This document shows, piece after piece, positions 36,186 to 63,405 of a DNA stretch of 64,000 bases. How positions within the stretch are numbered: position 1 is the stretch's first letter; every line of letters begins with the position of its first letter. The position numbers were made by a program, and so were the translations under genes. The DNA comes from Frigoribacterium sp. PhB116 (GTDB lineage Bacteria > Actinomycetota > Actinomycetes > Actinomycetales > Microbacteriaceae). The stretch is from contig NZ_SOBE01000001.1 in assembly GCF_004364285.1 (NCBI RefSeq), positions 1,330,649 through 1,394,648 of the forward strand, read 5' to 3'. The notes under the pieces were generated by a model, which was given only the letters and a program-made list of their open reading frames with translations, was not told where the DNA came from and ran no database searches.

Positions 36186-36273
36186 CGAACCATGCAACCA
36201 CGGCGCCCTCACCCGCCGACGCAAACCAGCTCCAGGGTGCGACCCGCGGCCGACGCGAGCTGACCCGGCCATC

Positions 36274-36288
36274 GATCGTCTGTGGGAC
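36274..36288 (+). repeat. Boundary motif, degenerate copy
   Basis: GATCGTCTGTGGGAC fits the 16-bp boundary motif with one base missing; it lies between the YrhK and WYL genes, the leftmost likely copy. Confidence 0.35.
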
Positions 36289-36341
36289 GGCGGCGGAGCT
36301 GCCGACATGATCGAGAGAGCGACCTGTCGGATGATGGAACA

Positions 36342-37518: not shown

Positions 37519-38454
37519 CCTCCGTCACCTGAGCCCCGACCTGGCGAGGTCCGGGTGAGGCTCACCCGTTCGGGAGTGGACCCCGGAGACACGAAGAAGC
37601 GTGAGGGCTGGCTGGGGTCGGCCATGCCCGTCCCACTCGTCATCCCGCACAGTGACGGCGCAGGAACAATGGACCAGGTAGGCGCGGGCGCAGATCCAGC
37701 CCTTCTGGGCAGCCGCGTCGCCGTGTACGGCGCGCAGTCGTACCGCGCGTTCGGCACCGCAGCCGAGTACGTCGTCACCCCGGAACACCTGGTGGTGCCT
37801 GTGCCGGACACCGTCTCCGACGACGTCGCCGCGGCACCCGGGATCCCGGGGATCACCGCGCACCGGGCCGTGTTCGCCGACGGCCCCGTCGAAGGACTCA
37901 CCGTGCTCGTACAGGGCGTCCTCGGCGGGGTCAGCGGCATCGCCGCACAGCTCGCCTCCTGGCAGGGTGCGACCGTCATCGGAACGGTCCGCCGGTCCAC
38001 AGACCTCGACCGTGTCGAATTGACCCCCGTCGACCACGTCGTCGCTCTCGACAGCGACCCGGTGGCCGCGATCCGCCGGATCGCCCCTGGAGGAGCAGAC
38101 CGCATCATCGAGGTCGCCCTCGACGCGAACGCTGACCTCGACGCGGCCGTGATCGCTGACGACGGCGTCACAGCGACCTACTTCGCTCACGGCGACAGGG
38201 TTTCCCTTCCGTTCCCGCCGCTGCTCTTCGCCGACGTGGTCATCCGGTTCCTCGGCAGCGATGACCTCCCGCTCAAGGCCAAGCGGACCGCGATGGTCGA
38301 CCTCGTGGCCGCCGTCGACGAGGGCGCCCTCACCATCCCGCTACGCGAAGTCCTCCCTCTTCATCGGATCGCCCGCGCCCATGACGACGTCGATGCCGGC
38401 CATCGCGGGAGGGTGCTGCTCTCGCTCGAGGAACGAGACAGGGCGACCCGCTGA
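37519..38454 (+). pseudogene. 5'-truncated MDR NADPH:quinone oxidoreductase-like gene
   Basis: The frame resumes recognisable homology at PEPRPGEVRVRLTRSG and continues through DPGDTKKREGWLGS, VYGAQSYRAFGTAAEYV and LVQGVLGGVSGIAAQLA to a normal C-terminus. The first 20-25 residues of the family (start codon, beta-1) are absent: the sequence abuts the VOC stop. The only upstream ATG in frame (37432) lies inside the VOC gene and would add an unrelated 27-residue leader. Either a non-functional remnant or a protein with an odd start. A boundary motif follows the stop by 2 nt. Confidence 0.6.
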
Positions 38455-38456
38455 CC

Positions 38457-38472
38457 GATCCCCTATCGGGAC
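38457..38472 (+). repeat. Boundary motif, consensus copy
   Basis: GATCCCCTATCGGGAC, preceded by AC-C so the dyad CCGAT/ATCGG is complete; 2 nt after the MDR stop. Left edge of the fluoride segment. Identical to the copy at 56587-56602. Confidence 0.8.
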
Positions 38473-38488
38473 AGGCGAACACACCCTT

Positions 38489-41757: not shown

Positions 41758-42131
41758 TCGCCCCGTGGCTCTTTGTCGCGATCGCGGTCGCCGGTGGTGT
41801 GGGTGCGGCCCTGCGCCTGGTCGTTGATGGCGCCGTCCGCAGCACGTGGTCGGCCCCCATTCCGCTGGCAACCCTGGTCATCAACGTCAGCGGGTCGTTC
41901 GTGCTCGGCTTGCTCACCGGTCTTGCCGACCACGCGGGGCTGCCTCGAGAGTGGCTGCTCGTCGCGGGGGGCGGGCTCATGGGTGGCTACACCACGTTCA
42001 GCACCGCCAGCGTCGAGACCGTGCGCCTCGTAGCCGAGAAGAAATGGGTCGCTGGGATCGCCAGCGGCGCGGGCATGCTGCTGCTCGCCGTCGCCGCCGG
42101 GCTTGCCGGCCTCACCATCGGCACGTCATGA
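41754..42131 (+). CDS. crcB: CrcB/Fluc fluoride channel subunit, short form
   Basis: 125 residues, four helices, INVSGSFVLGLLTG and GLMGGYTTFSTASVE. GTG start at 41754 overlaps the upstream stop. Exports F- passively down its gradient. Its TGA stop shares bases with the boundary motif at 42130, so the segment ends exactly at the gene end. Confidence 0.93.
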   Translation: MIAPWLFVAIAVAGGVGAALRLVVDGAVRSTWSAPIPLATLVINVSGSFVLGLLTGLADHAGLPREWLLVAGGGLMGGYTTFSTASVETVRLVAEKKWVAGIASGAGMLLLAVAAGLAGLTIGTS

Positions 42132-42145
42132 TCGGCTATCGAGCG
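42130..42145 (+). repeat. Boundary motif closing the fluoride segment
   Basis: GATCGGCTATCGAGCG overlaps the crcB stop codon; diverged in the last four bases. Confidence 0.6.
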
Positions 42146-45344: not shown

Positions 45345-45457
45345 CCCTAGACGGTACGACGTTGAGGACCGTTTCCGCCCGCTCACCGACGACGCGGAAC
45401 GACCAAGACGGCGTCCTCTCCGAGTGCGCTCGCCCCACAGCAAGTGATCCAGTGGGC

Positions 45458-45473
45458 GATCCTCTTTCGGGCG
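45458..45473 (+). repeat. Boundary motif
   Basis: GATCCTCTTTCGGGCG, in the gene-poor stretch between the UDG-like gene and the MoeA-like fragment. Confidence 0.5.
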
Positions 45474-45703
45474 GGCCGAGGGCATTCGGCCTGAGCCAGA
45501 CTTGTCGCCGTCTCGGAGTGCGCTGAGGGAATCGTCCCCGTCGAGAGGCAGGGGCCGGCAATGACGTGCGGCCTCGTCGACGTGGACTCGACCGCAGTCA
45601 TTGAGACTTCGGGGATCGACGAAGGCGCGTCAGCACGCACTCTCTCGCTGCCCTGGTCTCGCTGAGATACGGCCTTTCTCAAGAGCGCACCTCGTGTCCG
45701 CTC

Positions 45704-47148: not shown

Positions 47149-47250
47149 CAGGACCATCCCGGCGACTGAGCCGTGGAAGTTGGGCAAGGCGTCCATGCTC
47201 CAGCCAACGTCTCACTGAACCATCGGCCACCGAACGATCCCGTGGTGTCA

Positions 47251-47315
47251 GCCACTCCCCCGTAGCTGAGGGGCTTGGGCCGTCTCGCTAGATCAGTCCG
47301 AAACCGATCGCGATG
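47251..47315 (+). repeat. 65-bp element, copy 1
   Basis: Aligns without gaps to 63274-63338 (52 of 65 identical by eye). Contains CCCC/GGGG arms (CTCCCCCG...GGGG), GTCTCG and TCCGAAAC. Ends 3 bp before a boundary motif, exactly as copy 2 does. Confidence 0.75.
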
Positions 47316-47318
47316 GAG

Positions 47319-47334
47319 GCTCCCCTACTGGGAC
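47319..47334 (+). repeat. Boundary motif supplying the NYN stop codon
   Basis: GCTCCCCTACTGGGAC, 13 of 16 to consensus. Its CTA is the TAG stop of the leftward NYN/OST-HTH fragment. Confidence 0.65.
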
Positions 47335-47807
47335 TGGCCCTTGAGGCGGACCCGGTGGCCTGTCGCCATCGGCTCGACTGCGAACTGTTCTGTCGCGCGG
47401 ACGAGTTCTGAGAGCTTGGTGAAGCCCCAGTTGCGGGAGTCGAAGTCTGGACGCCACTTGCGTAAAAGGCTCCCCACGGTGGCAAGGTTTGCCCACCCGT
47501 CTTCGGAGGACGCGGTGCCGACGCTGTTCCGAAGTCCCTCGATGAGACGTGCGTCGTCTCGCGGAGACAACGCCGTCGGCCGTTCCGTCGTCGTGGCTTC
47601 GGGGGCGGTTTCCCCCTCGGTGACGCCGAGGACATCGAAGTAGGTGACCTGGTCGCAGGCGTTCCGGAACGATGTCGGCGTCTTGCGCTCCCCGAACCCG
47701 TAGACGGTGATCCCTTCCTCTCGGATACGAGAGGCAAGCCGGGGGAAGTCGCTGTCCGACGACGCGATGCAGAACCTCTGGAATCGGCCCGTGTAGAGCA
47801 GGTGAGC
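47325..47807 (-). pseudogene. NYN (PIN-like) / OST-HTH protein gene, 5' half missing
   Basis: From the right edge the minus frame reads HLLYTGRFQRFCIASSDSDF, then LASRIREEGITVYGFGERKTP and ACDQVTYFDVL, the C-terminal half of a NYN ribonuclease domain. After a linker comes an OST-HTH/LOTUS domain (RLIEGLRNSVGTASSEDGW to LSELVRATEQFAV). The N-terminal NYN half and start are absent; the break coincides with the boundary motif at 47808, where an in-frame stop appears. The piece is thus bounded by motifs on both sides (489 bp). Confidence 0.8.
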
Positions 47808-47823
47808 GATCCCCTATCGGAAC
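47808..47823 (+). repeat. Boundary motif at the NYN truncation point
   Basis: GATCCCCTATCGGAAC, 15 of 16 to consensus, at the exact junction where NYN coding homology stops. Confidence 0.75.
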
Positions 47824-47840
47824 ACGCTGGACCGTTAGCG

Positions 47841-52468: not shown

Positions 52469-52544
52469 GCGCCCCGGACCGCTCGCACAACCCTGTGATG
52501 ACCGACAGCGAAGCCATCACACGAGCCGGTGACGCCCGGCTATC

Positions 52545-52560
52545 GATCGTCTAACGGGAC
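52545..52560 (+). repeat. Boundary motif, array unit 1 left edge
   Basis: GATCGTCTAACGGGAC; left edge of the dense array. Confidence 0.7.
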
Positions 52561-52592
52561 ACCGCTCCTAGGCCTCATGGTTGGATCGGTCT

Positions 52593-52823
52593 ATGCCGCA
52601 GGGAAAGCCACCAGAACCGCGAACCGAGAAGCAAAACATCGGGACGATGGTCTTCGGTCTGGGGCTCGGGGCCTTTGGCGTGGCCTGGCTCATCTTTAAC
52701 CCCAATTGGTCAGGCATCACGACTCGAGGCCTGCCGGTCTGGCTGGTCGGCCTATTGCTCATTGGGCCTTCGTGCGCTCTGTTCGTGATTGGACTACGGA
52801 GCTTCCTTGCCAATAAGCCTTAG
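52593..52823 (+). CDS. Small two-helix membrane protein (unit 1)
   Basis: 76 residues from ATG 52593 (TTG 52581 possible). A charged N-terminus (MPQGKPPEPRTEKQ) precedes two helices (MVFGLGLGAFGVAWLIF and LVGLLLIGPSCALFVIGL). No family recognised. It is the only gene of a 352-bp motif-bounded unit, and the local sequence is AT-richer than the flanks. Confidence 0.6.
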   Translation: MPQGKPPEPRTEKQNIGTMVFGLGLGAFGVAWLIFNPNWSGITTRGLPVWLVGLLLIGPSCALFVIGLRSFLANKP

Positions 52824-52896
52824 TTGCGGCGATGTTCACACCTGGATGGCTCGCAGGAGTCACGCGTAGACGGCTGAGTAATGGCTTAGCCGAGGC

Positions 52897-52912
52897 AATC
52901 CCCTATCGGGCG
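52897..52912 (+). repeat. Boundary motif carrying a stop codon
   Basis: AATCCCCTATCGGGCG; its CTA (52903-52905) is the TAG stop of the leftward gene. Confidence 0.7.
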
Positions 52913-53427
52913 TGCGGCTCCCTATGTCGCAACTCGTCGAGTATGCGGGTGAGCCTGTCGTAGCCCCGCCAGGCGCTGACCGTCGACACGATGAGCAAAG
53001 CAAGGAAGACGAGAGCGAGGACGAACCAGACCGGACCCGCTGTAGAAGCGAGCCAGAGGCTGAGCGCGATGAAGCCCGTGAACACGACAGGTGCCAGCCA
53101 CCTCGATCTACGGTTCTGGTCCCGCCACTTCTCGAGCATCGGGATCCATGTCGACGAGTCGACGTCCAAAGGAAGGGCGCCGGCCTTCACCGCAGCCTGC
53201 ATCCGGGAAAGCTCATCAACACCGCCGGCACGACGCCGAGCACGACTGATGACCACTCCGAGAAAGGCCGTCATTGCACCCGCGTAGACGACCGTGCTGA
53301 TGAGACGGGCAATCACGGGCTGTTCGGCCGGCATGACGACGACACCGATGCCCAGCCACAAGGCAGCCAGGAGGACGAAGAGCAAGGGCAGGAGCGCTCG
53401 AAGCGGCAGGGAGCGGAAACGCGCCAT
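52903..53427 (-). CDS. Four-helix membrane protein (unit 2)
   Basis: 174 residues. Helices at about 10-32, 38-58, 112-128 and 130-148, with a cytoplasmic segment (RMQAAVKAGALPLDVDSSTWIPMLEKWRDQNRR) between the second and third. The pattern resembles small actinobacterial membrane proteins of unknown role. The TAG stop is provided by the boundary motif. Only gene of a 623-bp unit. Confidence 0.7.
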   Translation of the reverse strand: MARFRSLPLRALLPLLFVLLAALWLGIGVVVMPAEQPVIARLISTVVYAGAMTAFLGVVISRARRRAGGVDELSRMQAAVKAGALPLDVDSSTWIPMLEKWRDQNRRSRWLAPVVFTGFIALSLWLASTAGPVWFVLALVFLALLIVSTVSAWRGYDRLTRILDELRHREPHAR

Positions 53428-53519
53428 CGGGGGGACTCCTTCGGATTAGCTCATACCCTTCCCTAGATTGTCTCCGCGTGACCGCATTGGAGCCGGCCCA
53501 TCACACGCGTACGGGCACG

Positions 53520-53535
53520 GATCGGCTATTGGGCA
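53520..53535 (+). repeat. Boundary motif carrying a stop codon
   Basis: GATCGGCTATTGGGCA; CTA at 53526-53528 is the TAG stop of the HAD gene. Confidence 0.7.
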
Positions 53536-54218
53536 TCCGCAGACCTGGCGATCACGGACCGGACCAACTCACCGATCGGAAGCTCGCGGCGCCCGTGGCC
53601 GTCGACCAGCAGCGCCTGCATCCCGGCTGCCCTGGCTCCGTCAACGTCCTTCACCGGATCGTCGCCGACGAACAGGCATGCCTCCGGCTCGACTCCGAGC
53701 TCAGAGGCGAGAACGGCGAAGGCCCTCACGTCGGGCTTTGCGAAACCGACGCGCTCAGACGTGCAAACGACATCGAACTCGACGAGGAGACCTGTACGCC
53801 GGAGCTTTGCTAGCTGCTGAGCCTCCGTCCCGTTCGTCAGCAGCCCGATGCGATGACCGGACGCGCGCAAGTTCTGAAGAAGTGGAAGCGCATCGGGGAA
53901 TGCCCGCCATGACGACTCGTACGCCCGCAGATAACCGCCGAACAGCCCGTCGACATCGACCTCGCCCGCAGGGACATCCACCCCGAGCGGCGGGAGGACA
54001 GAGCGCAGCCGCTCACGGCGCTGCTCCAAGAAGCTGATCTCACCCGACCGCCAACGCTCGAAGTGCAGCTCTTCGGCGGCGAACCAGCTAGCAAGCGTCG
54101 AGTCTGACGCGACCACACCGAGCGAGCCGAGGAAGTGGACCGCGGCGGATCGGGCTGAACCGTAGTGATCGAACAGCGTCCCGTCGAGGTCGAAGCCGAC
54201 CGCACCCACTCGCGTCAC
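53526..54218 (-). CDS. HAD-superfamily hydrolase (unit 3)
   Basis: 230 residues from GTG at 54218. Motif I FDLDGTLFD (nucleophile Asp), motif II LLTNG, motif III Lys in FAKPD and motif IV VGDDPVKD; a helical cap lies between I and II. Subfamily IA phosphatase, similar to YjjG/phosphoglycolate-type enzymes. The only unit in the array with a clearly enzymatic product; stop codon lies in the boundary motif. Confidence 0.88.
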   Translation of the reverse strand: MTRVGAVGFDLDGTLFDHYGSARSAAVHFLGSLGVVASDSTLASWFAAEELHFERWRSGEISFLEQRRERLRSVLPPLGVDVPAGEVDVDGLFGGYLRAYESSWRAFPDALPLLQNLRASGHRIGLLTNGTEAQQLAKLRRTGLLVEFDVVCTSERVGFAKPDVRAFAVLASELGVEPEACLFVGDDPVKDVDGARAAGMQALLVDGHGRRELPIGELVRSVIARSADAQ

Positions 54219-54247
54219 CGCGCCAGTCTAGAAGTGGACCGGTGGCC

Positions 54248-54263
54248 GATCCTCAATCGGGCA
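54248..54263 (+). repeat. Boundary motif
   Basis: GATCCTCAATCGGGCA, with full CCGAT/ATCGG dyad; between unit 3 and unit 4. Confidence 0.65.
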
Positions 54264-54312
54264 GACCAAGTCTTGCGACCTAGCTGTCACCGATTCAGAG
54301 AGATGATGGGTC

Positions 54313-54636
54313 ATGTCCTCCGATGACGGCACCCAGTCTCGCCTTCAGCAGCAGCGACGGGTCCCTCGCATCGCTGCTGCGCTTCTCGCAGCAGCTTTCG
54401 TATTCCTCGTCTTGCTCCCTCTGCTGCCCAGTCCCTACGTCTCGGGCGGCGCGCGACTTGCGTTGTTCCTCCTACCCCTCCCTCCCCTCCTGGCTTTCGG
54501 GGGCACACTCGCAGCACTCCTCGACCGAAAGATCGGCGAAACCAGCAAGGGCCTATGGGCCATCGGCTCAGCCCTCTTCGGGTTCGTCTGCGTACCGGCA
54601 CTCTTCGTGCTCGTCACCCTCATAGCGGGGCCCTAA
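54313..54636 (+). CDS. Three-helix membrane protein (unit 4)
   Basis: 107 residues from ATG 54313. A polar N-terminus (SSDDGTQSRLQQQRR) is followed by helices at about 20-40, 46-68 and 80-105. No family recognised. Only gene of a 442-bp unit. Confidence 0.65.
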   Translation: MSSDDGTQSRLQQQRRVPRIAAALLAAAFVFLVLLPLLPSPYVSGGARLALFLLPLPPLLAFGGTLAALLDRKIGETSKGLWAIGSALFGFVCVPALFVLVTLIAGP

Positions 54637-54689
54637 AGAATGAGCTCTCTGGCCAACGTGATCACCAGAGGACCAATTGGCCGCTGACT

Positions 54690-54705
54690 GATCTCCTACC
54701 GGGCA
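54690..54705 (+). repeat. Boundary motif carrying a stop codon
   Basis: GATCTCCTACCGGGCA; CTA at 54696-54698 is the TAG stop of the leftward unit-5 gene. Confidence 0.6.
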
Positions 54706-54895
54706 CCAGTGGATTCATCCCTCCGCCGCGATACGTAGGAGCGGTAAAGAGCGATCAGGGTCAGCGGAGCGCCAATCACGACCAGCCATATAGCGCCGGA
54801 GACCGACCGAGACCAGCAAGGCCCACGCCGATCATGGTCGGTCCGAGAATGAGTCCGACAAGGATCAAGATCGTCCCGCGACGCCTCTGCTGCAT
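54696..54895 (-). pseudogene. Small membrane protein gene with frameshift (unit 5)
   Basis: From ATG 54895 the frame reads MQQRRRGTILILVGLILGPT, then MIGVGLAGLGRS, and stops at a TGA soon after; a second frame continues with SGAIWLVVIGAPLTLIALY, then RSYVSRRRDESTGAR, to the motif-borne TAG. Both halves look like one two-helix protein of about 66 residues; the 200-nt span is one base short of 201. Either a one-base deletion, a sequencing error or recoding. Confidence 0.6.
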
Positions 54896-54973
54896 GAACG
54901 GAGCCTGCCACTTGCAGAGCTCAGGTGTTGCTGCGCGCCGGCACAGAGGGGCAGCCCTCTAGGACCGTTGGCC

Positions 54974-54989
54974 GATCGTCTACTGCGAC
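54974..54989 (+). repeat. Boundary motif, diverged
   Basis: GATCGTCTACTGCGAC, preceded by GGCC; between units 5 and 6. Confidence 0.5.
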
Positions 54990-55090
54990 TCTTTGATGAT
55001 GTCGCGGTGAGTGCGATCGACGATGCAGCGACAACGATCCCGCTTCGCGCCACGAAACCGATGGCGGATCGTTCCTCGATAGGGTCGAGT

Positions 55091-55195
55091 ATGAAGTCCT
55101 TCGGATGGCGCGTATTCGGCTGGGGCATTGCACTCACCGTCGTGGTTGTCGTCGGCGGGTTCATCCTCCGAAGCTTCGGCGCCGTCGCGGCCTGA
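55091..55195 (+). CDS. 34-residue single-helix peptide (unit 6)
   Basis: MKSFGWRVFGWGIALTVVVV, then VGGFILRSFGAVAA: a short basic/aromatic start and one membrane helix. AGGG lies 7 nt before ATG 55091. A longer frame from TTG 54968 would run through the boundary motif and is not preferred. Only plausible product of a 285-bp unit; could be a toxin-like or regulatory micropeptide, but nothing proves it is made. Confidence 0.4.
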   Translation: MKSFGWRVFGWGIALTVVVVVGGFILRSFGAVAA

Positions 55196-55258
55196 CTCAC
55201 GGGGACGTCATGCCGAGGAACGAGCCGCCTCCGCCGCCATGGCGCATTCCCGCGCGGG

Positions 55259-55274
55259 GATCCCCTAACGGGCG
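55259..55274 (+). repeat. Boundary motif
   Basis: GATCCCCTAACGGGCG; 7 bp before the stop codon of the leftward unit-7 gene. Confidence 0.65.
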
Positions 55275-55281
55275 CGAAGCC

Positions 55282-55539
55282 TCAGTCTTGGTTCTCGGAC
55301 TTAAGAGAGGCGTCGTAGGCCTCGTACGGCAGGGCTTTGAGGTAGAACGTGACCTTTAGGAGCATGGCTCCAGCCACGGCCCCGAGCGCAGCAACGGGCC
55401 AGAAGATCCACATGCCCGTGACGACCGCAGCGAAGACCAGCATGCCCGTGCACAACCCAGCGACAGTCGCAGCGCCATACGTGATCTCACGGGGGATGGA
55501 ACCCCACACTTTTCGGTCTTCCAGAATCGTCAGACTCAT
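55282..55539 (-). CDS. Two-helix membrane protein (unit 7)
   Basis: 85 residues from ATG 55539 with GGGAGAG upstream. Helices at about 22-45 and 47-65 (AATVAGLCTGMLVFAAVV; VAALGAVAGAMLLKVTFYL), then an acidic tail (DASLKSENQD). Resembles the small YxxxIP-type helper proteins with REITYG before the first helix, but no family is certain. Confidence 0.65.
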   Translation of the reverse strand: MSLTILEDRKVWGSIPREITYGAATVAGLCTGMLVFAAVVTGMWIFWPVAALGAVAGAMLLKVTFYLKALPYEAYDASLKSENQD

Positions 55540-55629
55540 CGGCTCTCTCCCAAATCTCGGAGCCCAACATGGCTCGGATGCTCAGCTAAGCGCCTTTACA
55601 GCGCGCGGCGTGCGAACCGCCCCGAGCAG

Positions 55630-55645
55630 GATCGTCTATCGGGAC
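55630..55645 (+). repeat. Boundary motif, consensus copy
   Basis: GATCGTCTATCGGGAC; between units 7 and 8. Confidence 0.75.
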
Positions 55646-55700
55646 AGGATCAATCGCCTGATGGACGCGTTGGCGCACAAGCGGGACCTACAGTCACCTC

Positions 55701-56228
55701 ATGCGAACACGTACCGTGATCCTCGGAGGGCCGCTCCTCGTAGCCCTCTACGCCGGCATCATGGTCGTGTCCCTCGGCTGGTTGGAGCCCCAAGCAGCCG
55801 TCCCGGGCCTCACGAGAACTGAGATAGCGCAGGGACTCGATCACTTCGGTAGCGACCTCACCGCACTGACCTGGTCACTCGTGGTTCTAGGCCTGGTTGG
55901 GGTCGGGCTCTCAGCAGTGGCCAGCACCGTGGGGCGCCGGGCTCGGCTCCAGCTGAGCACCATCGCGACCCTGCACCTCGGCTTGCTGGTCCTGGGAGCC
56001 CCCGTCTCGTTCTTCGCCGCTTTCCCGCTCGGCATGGACATGGCTGACGCCTTCGGGGTCTCAGGTGGACTCCGCACCCCGTGGTACATGGTGTTGCTCT
56101 GGGCGAGCGGCATCAGCCTGCTTTCGCTGCTCGCCCTGCTGTTCTCCACCATAAGAACGGGACAGCCGATCACCCCATCGCAAGAGTCAGGCGCCGAGAG
56201 GCGAGCTGCAACGATCCATCACCACTAG
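55701..56228 (+). CDS. Four-helix membrane protein (unit 8)
   Basis: 175 residues from ATG 55701 with almost no leader. Helices at about 7-27, 53-75, 85-105 and 125-148; extracytoplasmic loop with LEPQAAVPGLTRTEIAQGLDHF. No family recognised. TAG stop lies 2 nt before the next boundary motif, so here the plus-strand gene ends at the right motif. Confidence 0.7.
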   Translation: MRTRTVILGGPLLVALYAGIMVVSLGWLEPQAAVPGLTRTEIAQGLDHFGSDLTALTWSLVVLGLVGVGLSAVASTVGRRARLQLSTIATLHLGLLVLGAPVSFFAAFPLGMDMADAFGVSGGLRTPWYMVLLWASGISLLSLLALLFSTIRTGQPITPSQESGAERRAATIHHH

Positions 56229-56230
56229 CC

Positions 56231-56246
56231 GATCGGCTATCGGGAC
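56231..56246 (+). repeat. Boundary motif, consensus copy
   Basis: GATCGGCTATCGGGAC with full CCGAT/ATCGG dyad; between units 8 and 9. Confidence 0.8.
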
Positions 56247-56289
56247 GCAGAGCGTTCCCCTCTAGGTCGGTTTCGTGAAGCAACGGTTT

Positions 56290-56499
56290 CTAGCGTCGCA
56301 TCTCAGCCACGGCTCGAACATTGAAGTAGATGCCGATCACGATCAGTCCCACGCCTAGGAGCATGAGCACATTCGGCAGGTCACTGAAGACCTTGGCGAT
56401 GAATAGGACGGCAGCCAGAAAATAGAAGATCGTGGCCACGCCCATAAGCTTTCTAAAGCGAGGAATGTTGAAAGGCACCAGCGGCTCCGTATCGATCAA
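56290..56499 (-). CDS. Two-helix membrane protein (unit 9)
   Basis: 69 residues from TTG 56499 (GAGG 9 nt upstream); ATG at 56445 is an alternative. Helices VATIFYFLAAVLFIAKVF and VLMLLGVGLIVIGIYFNV with a short polar turn. No family recognised. Only gene of a 356-bp unit. Confidence 0.55.
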   Translation of the reverse strand: MIDTEPLVPFNIPRFRKLMGVATIFYFLAAVLFIAKVFSDLPNVLMLLGVGLIVIGIYFNVRAVAEMRR

Positions 56500-56586
56500 G
56501 AGAAATAACCTCGCGGGCCGAAAGGTCGGCTGTGGACAAGACTCCTCGCAAGGTACTGCCCAGTGTGGCCCGCTGTCCCGAGGGTG

Positions 56587-56602
56587 GATCCCCTATCGGG
56601 AC
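56587..56602 (+). repeat. Boundary motif, consensus copy at array right edge
   Basis: GATCCCCTATCGGGAC, identical to the copy at 38457. A perfect 14-bp palindrome GCCGATGCATCGGC follows at 56625-56638. Confidence 0.8.
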
Positions 56603-56675
56603 GATCGTTTTTCGTAGCTTCGACGCCGATGCATCGGCACCACGGCCGTGTTGCAGCAGCTCCGCGTGATGAGAC

Positions 56676-63228: not shown

Positions 63229-63233
63229 CTCCC

Positions 63234-63248
63234 GTCCGATAGCCGATC
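63234..63248 (-). repeat. Boundary motif, the only inverted copy
   Basis: Minus strand reads GATCGGCTATCGGAC (one G short) with full dyad. Faces the plus copy at 63342, enclosing the 65-bp element. Confidence 0.7.
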
Positions 63249-63273
63249 GGCCAGCGACCATCGGCGGACGCTA

Positions 63274-63338
63274 GCCACTCCCCCGCATCTACGGGGCGCA
63301 GGCTGTCTCGATAGGTCAATCCGAAACTGATCTCGATG
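63274..63338 (+). repeat. 65-bp element, copy 2
   Basis: Ungapped partner of 47251-47315; contains CCCCG/CGGGG arms around CATCTA. Ends 3 bp before the boundary motif at 63342. Confidence 0.75.
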
Positions 63339-63341
63339 ACC

Positions 63342-63357
63342 GATCGACTATCGGGAT
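63342..63357 (+). repeat. Boundary motif
   Basis: GATCGACTATCGGGAT with full CCGAT/ATCGG dyad, 3 bp right of the 65-bp element; rightmost copy seen. Confidence 0.75.
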
Positions 63358-63405
63358 TCATCAACAGCCTTTCCCGGAATGACCCACCAACGACGAGGTG
63401 CAGGA

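What the first reader, a model, noticed from the sequence alone, without database searches (positions are those of the whole stretch)
52545..56602. Dense array of single-gene cassettes delimited by a directional 16-bp motif
Ten copies of GATCNNCTATCGGGAC-like sites, all on the plus strand, cut 4.06 kb into nine units of 284-728 bp, each with one gene. Genes point both ways but the sites do not. Seven units encode small membrane proteins, one a HAD hydrolase, one a 34-residue peptide. Unit size, single-gene content and site polarity resemble an integron cassette array, yet the site is far shorter than attC and no IntI-type gene is present. I know of no described system with this site.
Basis: partly seen in the sequence, partly recalled or inferred. 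Interest (0 to 1): 0.93.

Follow-up and report, generated by a model that had tools for sequence, protein, structure and literature searches.

The report
Serine-recombinase integron: interchangeable gene-cassette arrays
Frigoribacterium bacteria carry mostly one-way rows of small, interchangeable gene cassettes whose boundaries match a DNA site found beside the genes of the serine recombinase family encoded at the end of such rows, which likely makes this an integron-like gene-shuffling system built on a different kind of enzyme.

Summary
The motif is the right half of a ~28-bp imperfect dyad centred on AT; the window's array runs from about 36 kb to the contig end. The site occurs in 16 of 16 Frigoribacterium genomes searched, with no hit to the reversed pattern. 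A 189-aa serine recombinase (PF00239) lies at one end of the arrays: for 34 non-identical genes, the 6 kb downstream hold 121 sites, 112 facing the gene; the 6 kb upstream hold none. Between genomes, homology stops at the 4-bp centre of the site (30 cassettes seen from the head side, 29 from the tail side). In other genera, 20 of 57 upstream regions of the same recombinase family hold a matching dyad (random windows: 9 of 523), so the array sites are very probably its crossover sites. No IntI-like gene lies near the arrays checked, and the site is not attC. Best reading: an integron-like cassette system run by a small serine recombinase. Excision and insertion are inferred. Relatives of this enzyme need accessory sites, which the array sites lack, so synapsis is unexplained. 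The window's own recombinase gene probably lies across an assembly gap. Ten literature searches listed no description.

The parts
52533..52561 (+). recombination dyad, centre GATC at 52545
   Evidence: 26.0 bits; shared DNA changes from G006-like (left) to G015-like (right) here
52593..52823 (+). cassette 1 gene, 76 aa, two hydrophobic stretches
   Evidence: cassette 92% identical to one in G015
52885..52913 (+). degenerate dyad, centre AATC at 52897
   Evidence: central AT kept; homology of cassette 1 with G015 ends at 52896; 0.7 bits with centre masked
52903..53427 (-). cassette 2 gene, 174 aa membrane-like protein; its TAG stop is the CTA of the site
53508..53536 (+). dyad, centre GATC at 53520
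   Evidence: 16.5 bits; homology boundary
53526..54218 (-). cassette 3 gene, HAD-family hydrolase, 230 aa; stop codon inside the site
   Evidence: PF00702 1.8e-26; same cassette in G013, G015, G002 and G004 and, 83% identical, in G008
54236..54264 (+). dyad, centre GATC at 54248
   Evidence: 29.0 bits; homology boundary seen from both sides
54313..54636 (+). cassette 4 gene, 107 aa, three hydrophobic stretches
   Evidence: cassette also in G004 and G015
54678..54706 (+). dyad, centre GATC at 54690
   Evidence: 21.4 bits; boundary
54696..54911 (-). cassette 5 ORF, 71 aa (alternative: 39 aa at 54776-54895)
54962..54990 (+). dyad, centre GATC at 54974
   Evidence: 20.3 bits
55091..55195 (+). cassette 6 ORF, 34-residue hydrophobic peptide
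55247..55275 (+). dyad, centre GATC at 55259
   Evidence: 20.4 bits
55282..55539 (-). cassette 7 gene, 85 aa, two hydrophobic stretches
55618..55646 (+). dyad, centre GATC at 55630
   Evidence: 22.4 bits
55701..56228 (+). cassette 8 gene, 175 aa, four hydrophobic stretches
56219..56247 (+). dyad, centre GATC at 56231
   Evidence: 28.9 bits
56290..56499 (-). cassette 9 gene, 69 aa (TTG start), two hydrophobic stretches
56575..56603 (+). dyad, centre GATC at 56587; both halves close to the strong right-half type
   Evidence: 27.3 bits; GTCCCGAGGG on the left mirrors CTATCGGGAC
36262..36290 (+). leftmost, weak dyad, centre GATC at 36274
   Evidence: 14.4 bits; 6.3 with centre masked
38445..38473 (+). 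dyad, centre GATC at 38457
   Evidence: 31.5 bits; boundary with G015
42130..42145 (+). remnant site GATCGGCTATCGAGCG
   Evidence: homology with G013, G015, G004 and G005 stops at 42131; left half not recognisable
45446..45474 (+). dyad, centre GATC at 45458
   Evidence: 24.7 bits; boundary
47209..47335 (.). probable degenerate copy of the 97-bp double-site unit (centres 47221 and 47319, 98 bp apart; the inverted direction of the first is not recognisable)
   Evidence: left flank of 47319 resembles that of 63342
47796..47824 (+). dyad, centre GATC at 47808
   Evidence: 22.9 bits; 4.8-kb homology with G006 starts here
63233..63358 (.). 97-bp double-tail unit: inverted site at 63245 (-) and site at 63342 (+)
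   Evidence: 27.1 and 29.8 bits; 9 non-redundant copies with this exact spacing, this one included

Best explanation
The array is a row of exchangeable gene cassettes bounded by ~28-bp dyads, and a small serine recombinase of the kind encoded at the end of such arrays likely cuts these sites at their central AT to excise, insert and shuffle the cassettes, as an integron does with an unrelated enzyme. Shown by sequence: the dyad with its variable spacer, the prevailing one-way orientation, the recombinase gene on a fixed side of the genus's arrays, cassette exchange between genomes with breakpoints at the 4-bp centre, and a matching dyad upstream of many genes of the same recombinase family in other genera. 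Inferred: a recombinase dimer binds each site (tail half CCGGTRRNC, head half NNCTATCGGGCA), cuts with a 2-bp stagger, and two sites in the same direction release a one-gene circle carrying one site, which can enter another array. Inferred: the dyad beside the recombinase gene has an AC/GT centre (GGTC), which should not be joinable to AT-centred array sites, so the gene is not deleted with the cassettes. Inferred: the recombinase for the window's array is the one on contig C7, across an assembly gap.
For: (1) Site: 77 non-redundant copies, picked by the head half GATCnnCTAnCGGG[AC], show a tail half that was not selected for, CCGGTRRNC, and almost no conservation outside -11..+17. (2) Enzyme: 34 non-identical Frigoribacterium recombinase genes; sites of >=16 bits within 6 kb downstream: 112 facing the gene, 9 not; upstream 0 in 182,561 bp (the scan looked for GATC, AATC, GCTC and ACTC centres only); first site faces the gene in 29 of 31 loci that have one. 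Near copies merged, 30 genes: 106 to 9, upstream 0, 26 of 28. (3) Other genera: the centre-masked matrix finds >=14 bits in 20 of 57 upstream regions against 9 of 523 random windows; 18 of the 20 lie 141-152 bp before the GYxRVS codons. (4) Breakpoints: identity at -3 and -4 falls to 0.37 and 0.27 when only the right cassette is shared (n=30), and at +3 and +4 to 0.31 when only the left is shared (n=29). Pairs were chosen on flanks 15-75 bases away; the centre itself was required in calling sites. (5) Centres, with the centre left out of scoring: GATC 236, CATC 26, GACC 22, GGTC 12, GATG 7, AATC 4 and rarer ones, overlapping loci kept; reversed control 25 in all. AT is the common core, as for 2-bp serine crossovers. 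(6) Homology ends within 25 bp of a site: 371 of 1905, against 5-62 for twelve shifted controls. (7) G008 and G015 share a 4417-bp, 99.86% identical block of six units bounded by sites, with an extra 223-bp unit in G008 at its edge and a 3.4-kb unit elsewhere in the order. (8) Three looser filled/empty pairs (72% cut-off) lacking 4, 1 and 2 units meet at AT.
Against: No excision circle or recombination was observed. Tn3 resolvase does not recombine site I with site I without subsites II and III (passage in PMC12217951); array sites show no conserved accessory sequence, so this enzyme would have to be accessory-independent or use accessory DNA elsewhere. The gene-linked dyad is GGTC-centred in 31 of 34 loci (the other 3 not characterised), so it is no obvious attI partner for AT sites; of the 20 strong dyads beside relatives' genes only 2 have a GATC centre, 10 have GACC or GGTC. 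A few array sites have GACC centres. 37 of 280 neighbouring site pairs are inverted. Nearly identical G013 and G015 showed no whole-cassette difference in the stretches compared. Three of 34 recombinase genes have no site within 6 kb downstream. 81% of homology ends (1534 of 1905) are not within 25 bp of a called site. The window's recombinase is outside the window. DNA right after the recombinase stop codon differs between most loci although no site lies there. In other genera sites are of mixed orientation.
Confidence: 0.82

Rival explanations
1. The sites are scattered crossover sites of an ordinary Tn3-type resolution system, and the arrays are accidental products of resolvase-assisted rearrangement with no evolved cassette function.
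For: The enzyme and its upstream dyad look like a resolvase/res pair; Curtobacterium plasmid D35 and a contig of another genus (G046) hold several sites in mixed orientation.
Against: Density (median unit 758 bp), the 243:37 orientation bias, zero sites upstream of the gene and 133 distinct small units go beyond stray sites.
Confidence: 0.12
2. A true integron: IntI-type tyrosine recombinase acting on degenerate attC sites.
For: Array anatomy.
Against: No PF00589 hit within 30 kb of the known arrays of G000, G004, G008 or G015, the four genomes compared by coordinates; consensus lacks RYYYAAC/GTTRRRY boxes; breakpoints at the 4-bp centre.
Confidence: 0.02
3. XerCD-dependent modules like the pdif modules of Acinetobacter.
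For: 28-bp dyad-like site and small modules; two strong tyrosine recombinase genes in most genomes of the genus could be XerC and XerD (assignment recalled).
Against: pdif modules alternate in orientation (PMC13141974 passages), here they mostly do not; the exchange interval is at most 4 bp, shorter than a Xer spacer (6 bp, recalled); the linked enzyme is a serine recombinase.
Confidence: 0.02
4. Each unit is a DDE-type mini-transposon with short inverted ends and a GATC target duplication.
For: Unit ends are weak inverted repeats flanked by GATC.
Against: Head-to-tail polarity and single shared junctions, variable bases CATC/GATG/AATC around AT, and the dyad found upstream of serine recombinase genes.
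Confidence: 0.02

Closest known systems
Integrons (IntI, attI, attC gene cassettes)
   Same: Recombinase gene at one end of an array of small units in one prevailing site orientation; cassettes exchanged between species; stop codons in the site here, and in attC as recalled
   Different: Serine instead of tyrosine recombinase; double-stranded dyad instead of a folded attC; longest ORFs point either way (69 versus 61); recombinase gene faces the array
Tn3-family resolvase/res resolution systems
   Same: Small serine recombinase with an upstream crossover dyad; central AT or AC both known (PMC12217951 passage)
   Different: Many isolated site-I copies bounding other genes, with no conserved accessory sites at them
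pdif (Xer) modules of Acinetobacter
   Same: Modular genes between ~28-bp recombination sites, shuffled between replicons
   Different: pdif modules alternate C and D types with inverted sites and use XerCD; here sites mostly run one way with a linked serine recombinase
SCC elements with Ccr large serine recombinases
   Same: Serine recombinase and insertion of gene blocks at a fixed site (recalled)
   Different: Ccr family models are 442-558 positions long; here 189 aa and mostly small units
Gin/Hin DNA invertases
   Same: Best-scoring solved chains are 193-aa 'DNA-invertase' (4m6f, 3uj3)
   Different: Invertases act on inverted sites with an enhancer (recalled); here sites are mostly direct repeats

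Membership tests
Integron | IntI-type tyrosine recombinase beside the array | tested here: not met
   PF00589 hits lie >30 kb from the known arrays in G000, G004, G008 and G015; array-linked enzyme is PF00239
Integron | attC sites with RYYYAAC/GTTRRRY boxes and hairpin arms | tested here: not met
   Consensus of 77 sites has neither box and almost no conservation beyond -11..+17; hairpin folding was not run
Integron | Array of small single-gene cassettes in one orientation | tested here: met
   243 same versus 37 opposite; 171 units of 150-1500 bp, longest ORF covers a median 74%
Integron | Cassettes move individually by site-specific recombination | tested here: inconclusive
   Comparative breakpoints support it; no direct assay
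Tn3-family resolution system | Small serine recombinase | tested here: met
   PF00239 1e-41 and PF02796 3.6e-07
Tn3-family resolution system | Crossover dyad upstream of the gene | tested here: met
   GGTC-centred dyad in 31 of 34; relatives 20 of 57 at >=14 bits
Tn3-family resolution system | Accessory subsites II and III | tested here: inconclusive
   Conserved ~132-bp block between dyad and gene, subsites not resolved; none conserved at array sites
Tn3-family resolution system | Resolves cointegrates or dimers | not testable with these tools
   Needs an assay
pdif/Xer modules | Alternating inverted sites | tested here: not met
   243 same versus 37 opposite
pdif/Xer modules | XerC/XerD halves around a 6-bp spacer | tested here: not met
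   Exchange interval at most 4 bp; spacer length recalled
SCC/Ccr | Large serine recombinase | tested here: not met
   189 aa

The most novel reading that the evidence does not exclude
A second, independently evolved integron: a genus-wide gene-capture platform in Frigoribacterium in which a small serine recombinase moves one-gene cassettes between minimal double-stranded site-I dyads, the central dinucleotide acts as a code (AT for cassettes, AC/GT for the anchor that keeps the recombinase gene in place), and a strictly 97-bp double-tail unit serves as an accessory element that lets inverted units join a one-way array.
Probability: 0.5. Interest if true: 0.95.

Novelty: categorically new. Interest (0 to 1): 0.92.

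Why it matters
Integrons are the textbook case of bacterial gene-cassette capture, and their recombinase is a tyrosine recombinase acting on folded DNA (recalled). An analogous system using a small serine recombinase on ordinary double-stranded sites would show that cassette arrays evolved more than once. It would test the view that resolvase-type enzymes are limited to resolution by their accessory sites, open a large pool of unstudied small genes, and offer a new recombination tool whose specificity may rest on a 2-bp code.

Tried and rejected
Integron, Xer/pdif and DDE mini-transposons were considered and rejected for the reasons given under rivals. A first search for filled/empty cassette pairs gave only two overlapping copies of one locus and was discarded; the wider and looser search gave three. 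G013 against G015 gave no whole-cassette difference, only changes inside units. tRNA genes are not a common neighbour: ARAGORN found one in each of 2 of 25 loci. Cargo: 100 longest ORFs (of 127 of at least 60 aa listed) were scanned; Pfam matched 56 families, GNAT acetyltransferases in the largest number of members (4), and PADLOC 16 families, one member each; no defence theme. Longest ORFs in GC-rich DNA may be spurious in part. A hydropathy script failed halfway and was completed. A stop-codon test used the wrong offset and printed 0; it was recounted. Ten paper searches listed no description of such a system, judged from titles and starts of abstracts (one search listed 12 of 21 papers, one search listed 2 of 3); bioRxiv and most subscription papers are not held. 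Of the two papers used (PMC12217951, PMC13141974) I saw search listings and passages, not the whole text.
Full report
WHERE. The window is the right end of a 1.39-Mb contig of a 3.37-Mb genome. The 16 named loci whose recombinase is 95-98% identical to the own one are all Frigoribacterium, and three of their contigs have the lengths of contigs of G004, G006 and G007. I therefore take the genus of G000-G015 to be Frigoribacterium (Microbacteriaceae).

OBSERVATION. The ten sites exist as described. In the own genome, the eight places with at most one mismatch are seven in the window and one at C1:298399, about 2 kb from a serine recombinase gene at C1:300351. The exact pattern GATCNNCTATCGGGM occurs in 16 of 16 genomes of the genus (own plus 15) with no reversed-control hit in them. 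In 299 genomes of the family, 43 have a match: the 7 of this genus, and 36 of 292 others, which have at most five hits and mostly one; the reversed control gives 4 hits in all.

THE SITE. Aligning 77 non-redundant copies gives GnCCGGTRRNC-GATC-NNCTATCGGGCA. The head half and centre were used to pick the copies; the tail half was not. It is an imperfect dyad: the tail half CCGGTRR mirrors the head half CTATCGG. Some sites have two head halves (L045:13468 and L064:12032; window 56587), as expected if two oppositely oriented sites crossed over at the centre. When the centre is left out of scoring, centres are GATC 236, CATC 26, GACC 22, GGTC 12, GATG 7, AATC 4 and rarer ones (overlapping loci not removed; reversed control 25 in all). 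The common core is AT.

THE ENZYME. PF00239 searches of 16 genomes found a ~189-aa serine recombinase close to arrays. For 34 non-identical genes (from 39 loci given), 112 of 121 sites within 6 kb downstream face the gene and none lie within 6 kb upstream; 31 loci have a downstream site, and in 29 the first one faces the gene. With near copies merged, 30 genes give 106 of 115, none upstream, and 26 of 28. The protein has the resolvase domain and HTH_7 and matches solved DNA-invertase and gamma-delta resolvase chains; the alignment keeps the RVST and KLDRLxRS motifs (catalytic role recalled). In Frigoribacterium a GGTC-centred dyad lies about 132 bp before the gene in 31 of 34 cases. In the 13 loci aligned, the conservation common to all begins there, though some pairs share outer flanks too. 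In other genera, 57 upstream regions of the same family were tested with the centre-masked matrix trained on array sites alone: 20 reach 14 bits against 9 of 523 random windows, and 18 of the 20 lie 141-152 bp before the GYxRVS codons. Their centres are GACC or GGTC in 10, GTCC in 3, GTTC in 3, GATC in 2, other in 2. This links the array dyad to this enzyme family without using array position.

EXCHANGE. Between genomes, 371 of 1905 homology ends fall within 25 bp of a site; twelve shifted controls gave 5 to 62. In 30 non-redundant cassettes sharing only the right side and 29 sharing only the left, identity collapses at the two edges of GATC. The window's cassettes 1, 3 and 4 each occur in other genomes with at least one other neighbour. 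G008 and G015 share six units at 99.86% identity; an extra 223-bp unit sits at the block's edge in G008, and a 3.4-kb unit is in a different place. Three looser filled/empty pairs agree at AT. G013 and G015, nearly identical, showed no whole-cassette difference.

CARGO. 243 neighbouring site pairs agree in direction and 37 do not. Of 171 units of 150-1500 bp, 133 are distinct and 29 of these occur more than once; the longest ORF points with the site in 69, against it in 61, and 3 have none; mean GC is 62.6%. In 19 of 58 units whose longest ORF (at least 60 aa) points against the site, the stop codon lies at the CTA position of the site, read backwards (18 CTA, 1 TTA). Pfam and PADLOC results show mixed small functions.

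THE WINDOW'S ARRAY. Sites run from 36274 to 63342, and the contig ends at 64000. The sites point to the right, so the recombinase should lie beyond the contig end. Contig C7 carries one, with three sites facing it; its first downstream unit matches that of the G015 recombinase at 180 kb, and its outer flank and gene match G008 at 930 kb. Segments homologous to the C7 end and to the window lie about 2 kb apart in G015 and 9 kb apart in G008, in the order and direction expected if the C7 end joins the window's end. I infer that the C7 gene anchors the window array.

MECHANISM AND LIMITS. The best reading is site-specific excision and insertion of cassettes by the serine recombinase with a 2-bp overlap. 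The AC/GT centre beside the gene would protect it from deletion. The weak point is synapsis: Tn3 resolvase needs accessory subsites (PMC12217951 passage), and array sites have none conserved. A naturally accessory-independent enzyme, or accessory DNA in the upstream block or in the 97-bp unit, would solve this; none was tested.

NOVELTY. The parts, a small serine recombinase and its crossover dyad, are known; their use as a one-way gene-cassette array with the recombinase at the end was not found in ten searches of the held library.

Noticed in passing
window 63245-63342; L050, L052, L059, L063, L083, L091, L095, L191: A unit of exactly 97 bp with two tail halves (sites pointing outward), with conserved stretches, in 9 non-redundant copies; 8 of 16 head-head units sit next to one. 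Possible accessory or adaptor element.
   Followed up: partly
window 52903, 53526, 54696; other units: Genes running against the site often take their stop codon from the site itself: 19 of 58.
   Followed up: partly
G046 contig C15 (L173, L174): Another genus carries about 21 distinct sites of mixed orientation in 33 kb, with no such recombinase in the stretch fetched.
   Followed up: no
L194 (Curtobacterium plasmid D35), L193 (Frigoribacterium plasmid): The recombinase and such sites also occur on plasmids, which could carry cassettes between strains.
   Followed up: partly
L049:4096, L046:10293, L064:18194: A few sites inside arrays have GACC centres instead of GATC; they may mark units that cannot recombine with AT sites.
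   Followed up: no
L049:16330-16950; G013:C3, G006:C14 and others: A second, more distant serine recombinase lies a few kb beyond the first at some array ends.
   Followed up: no
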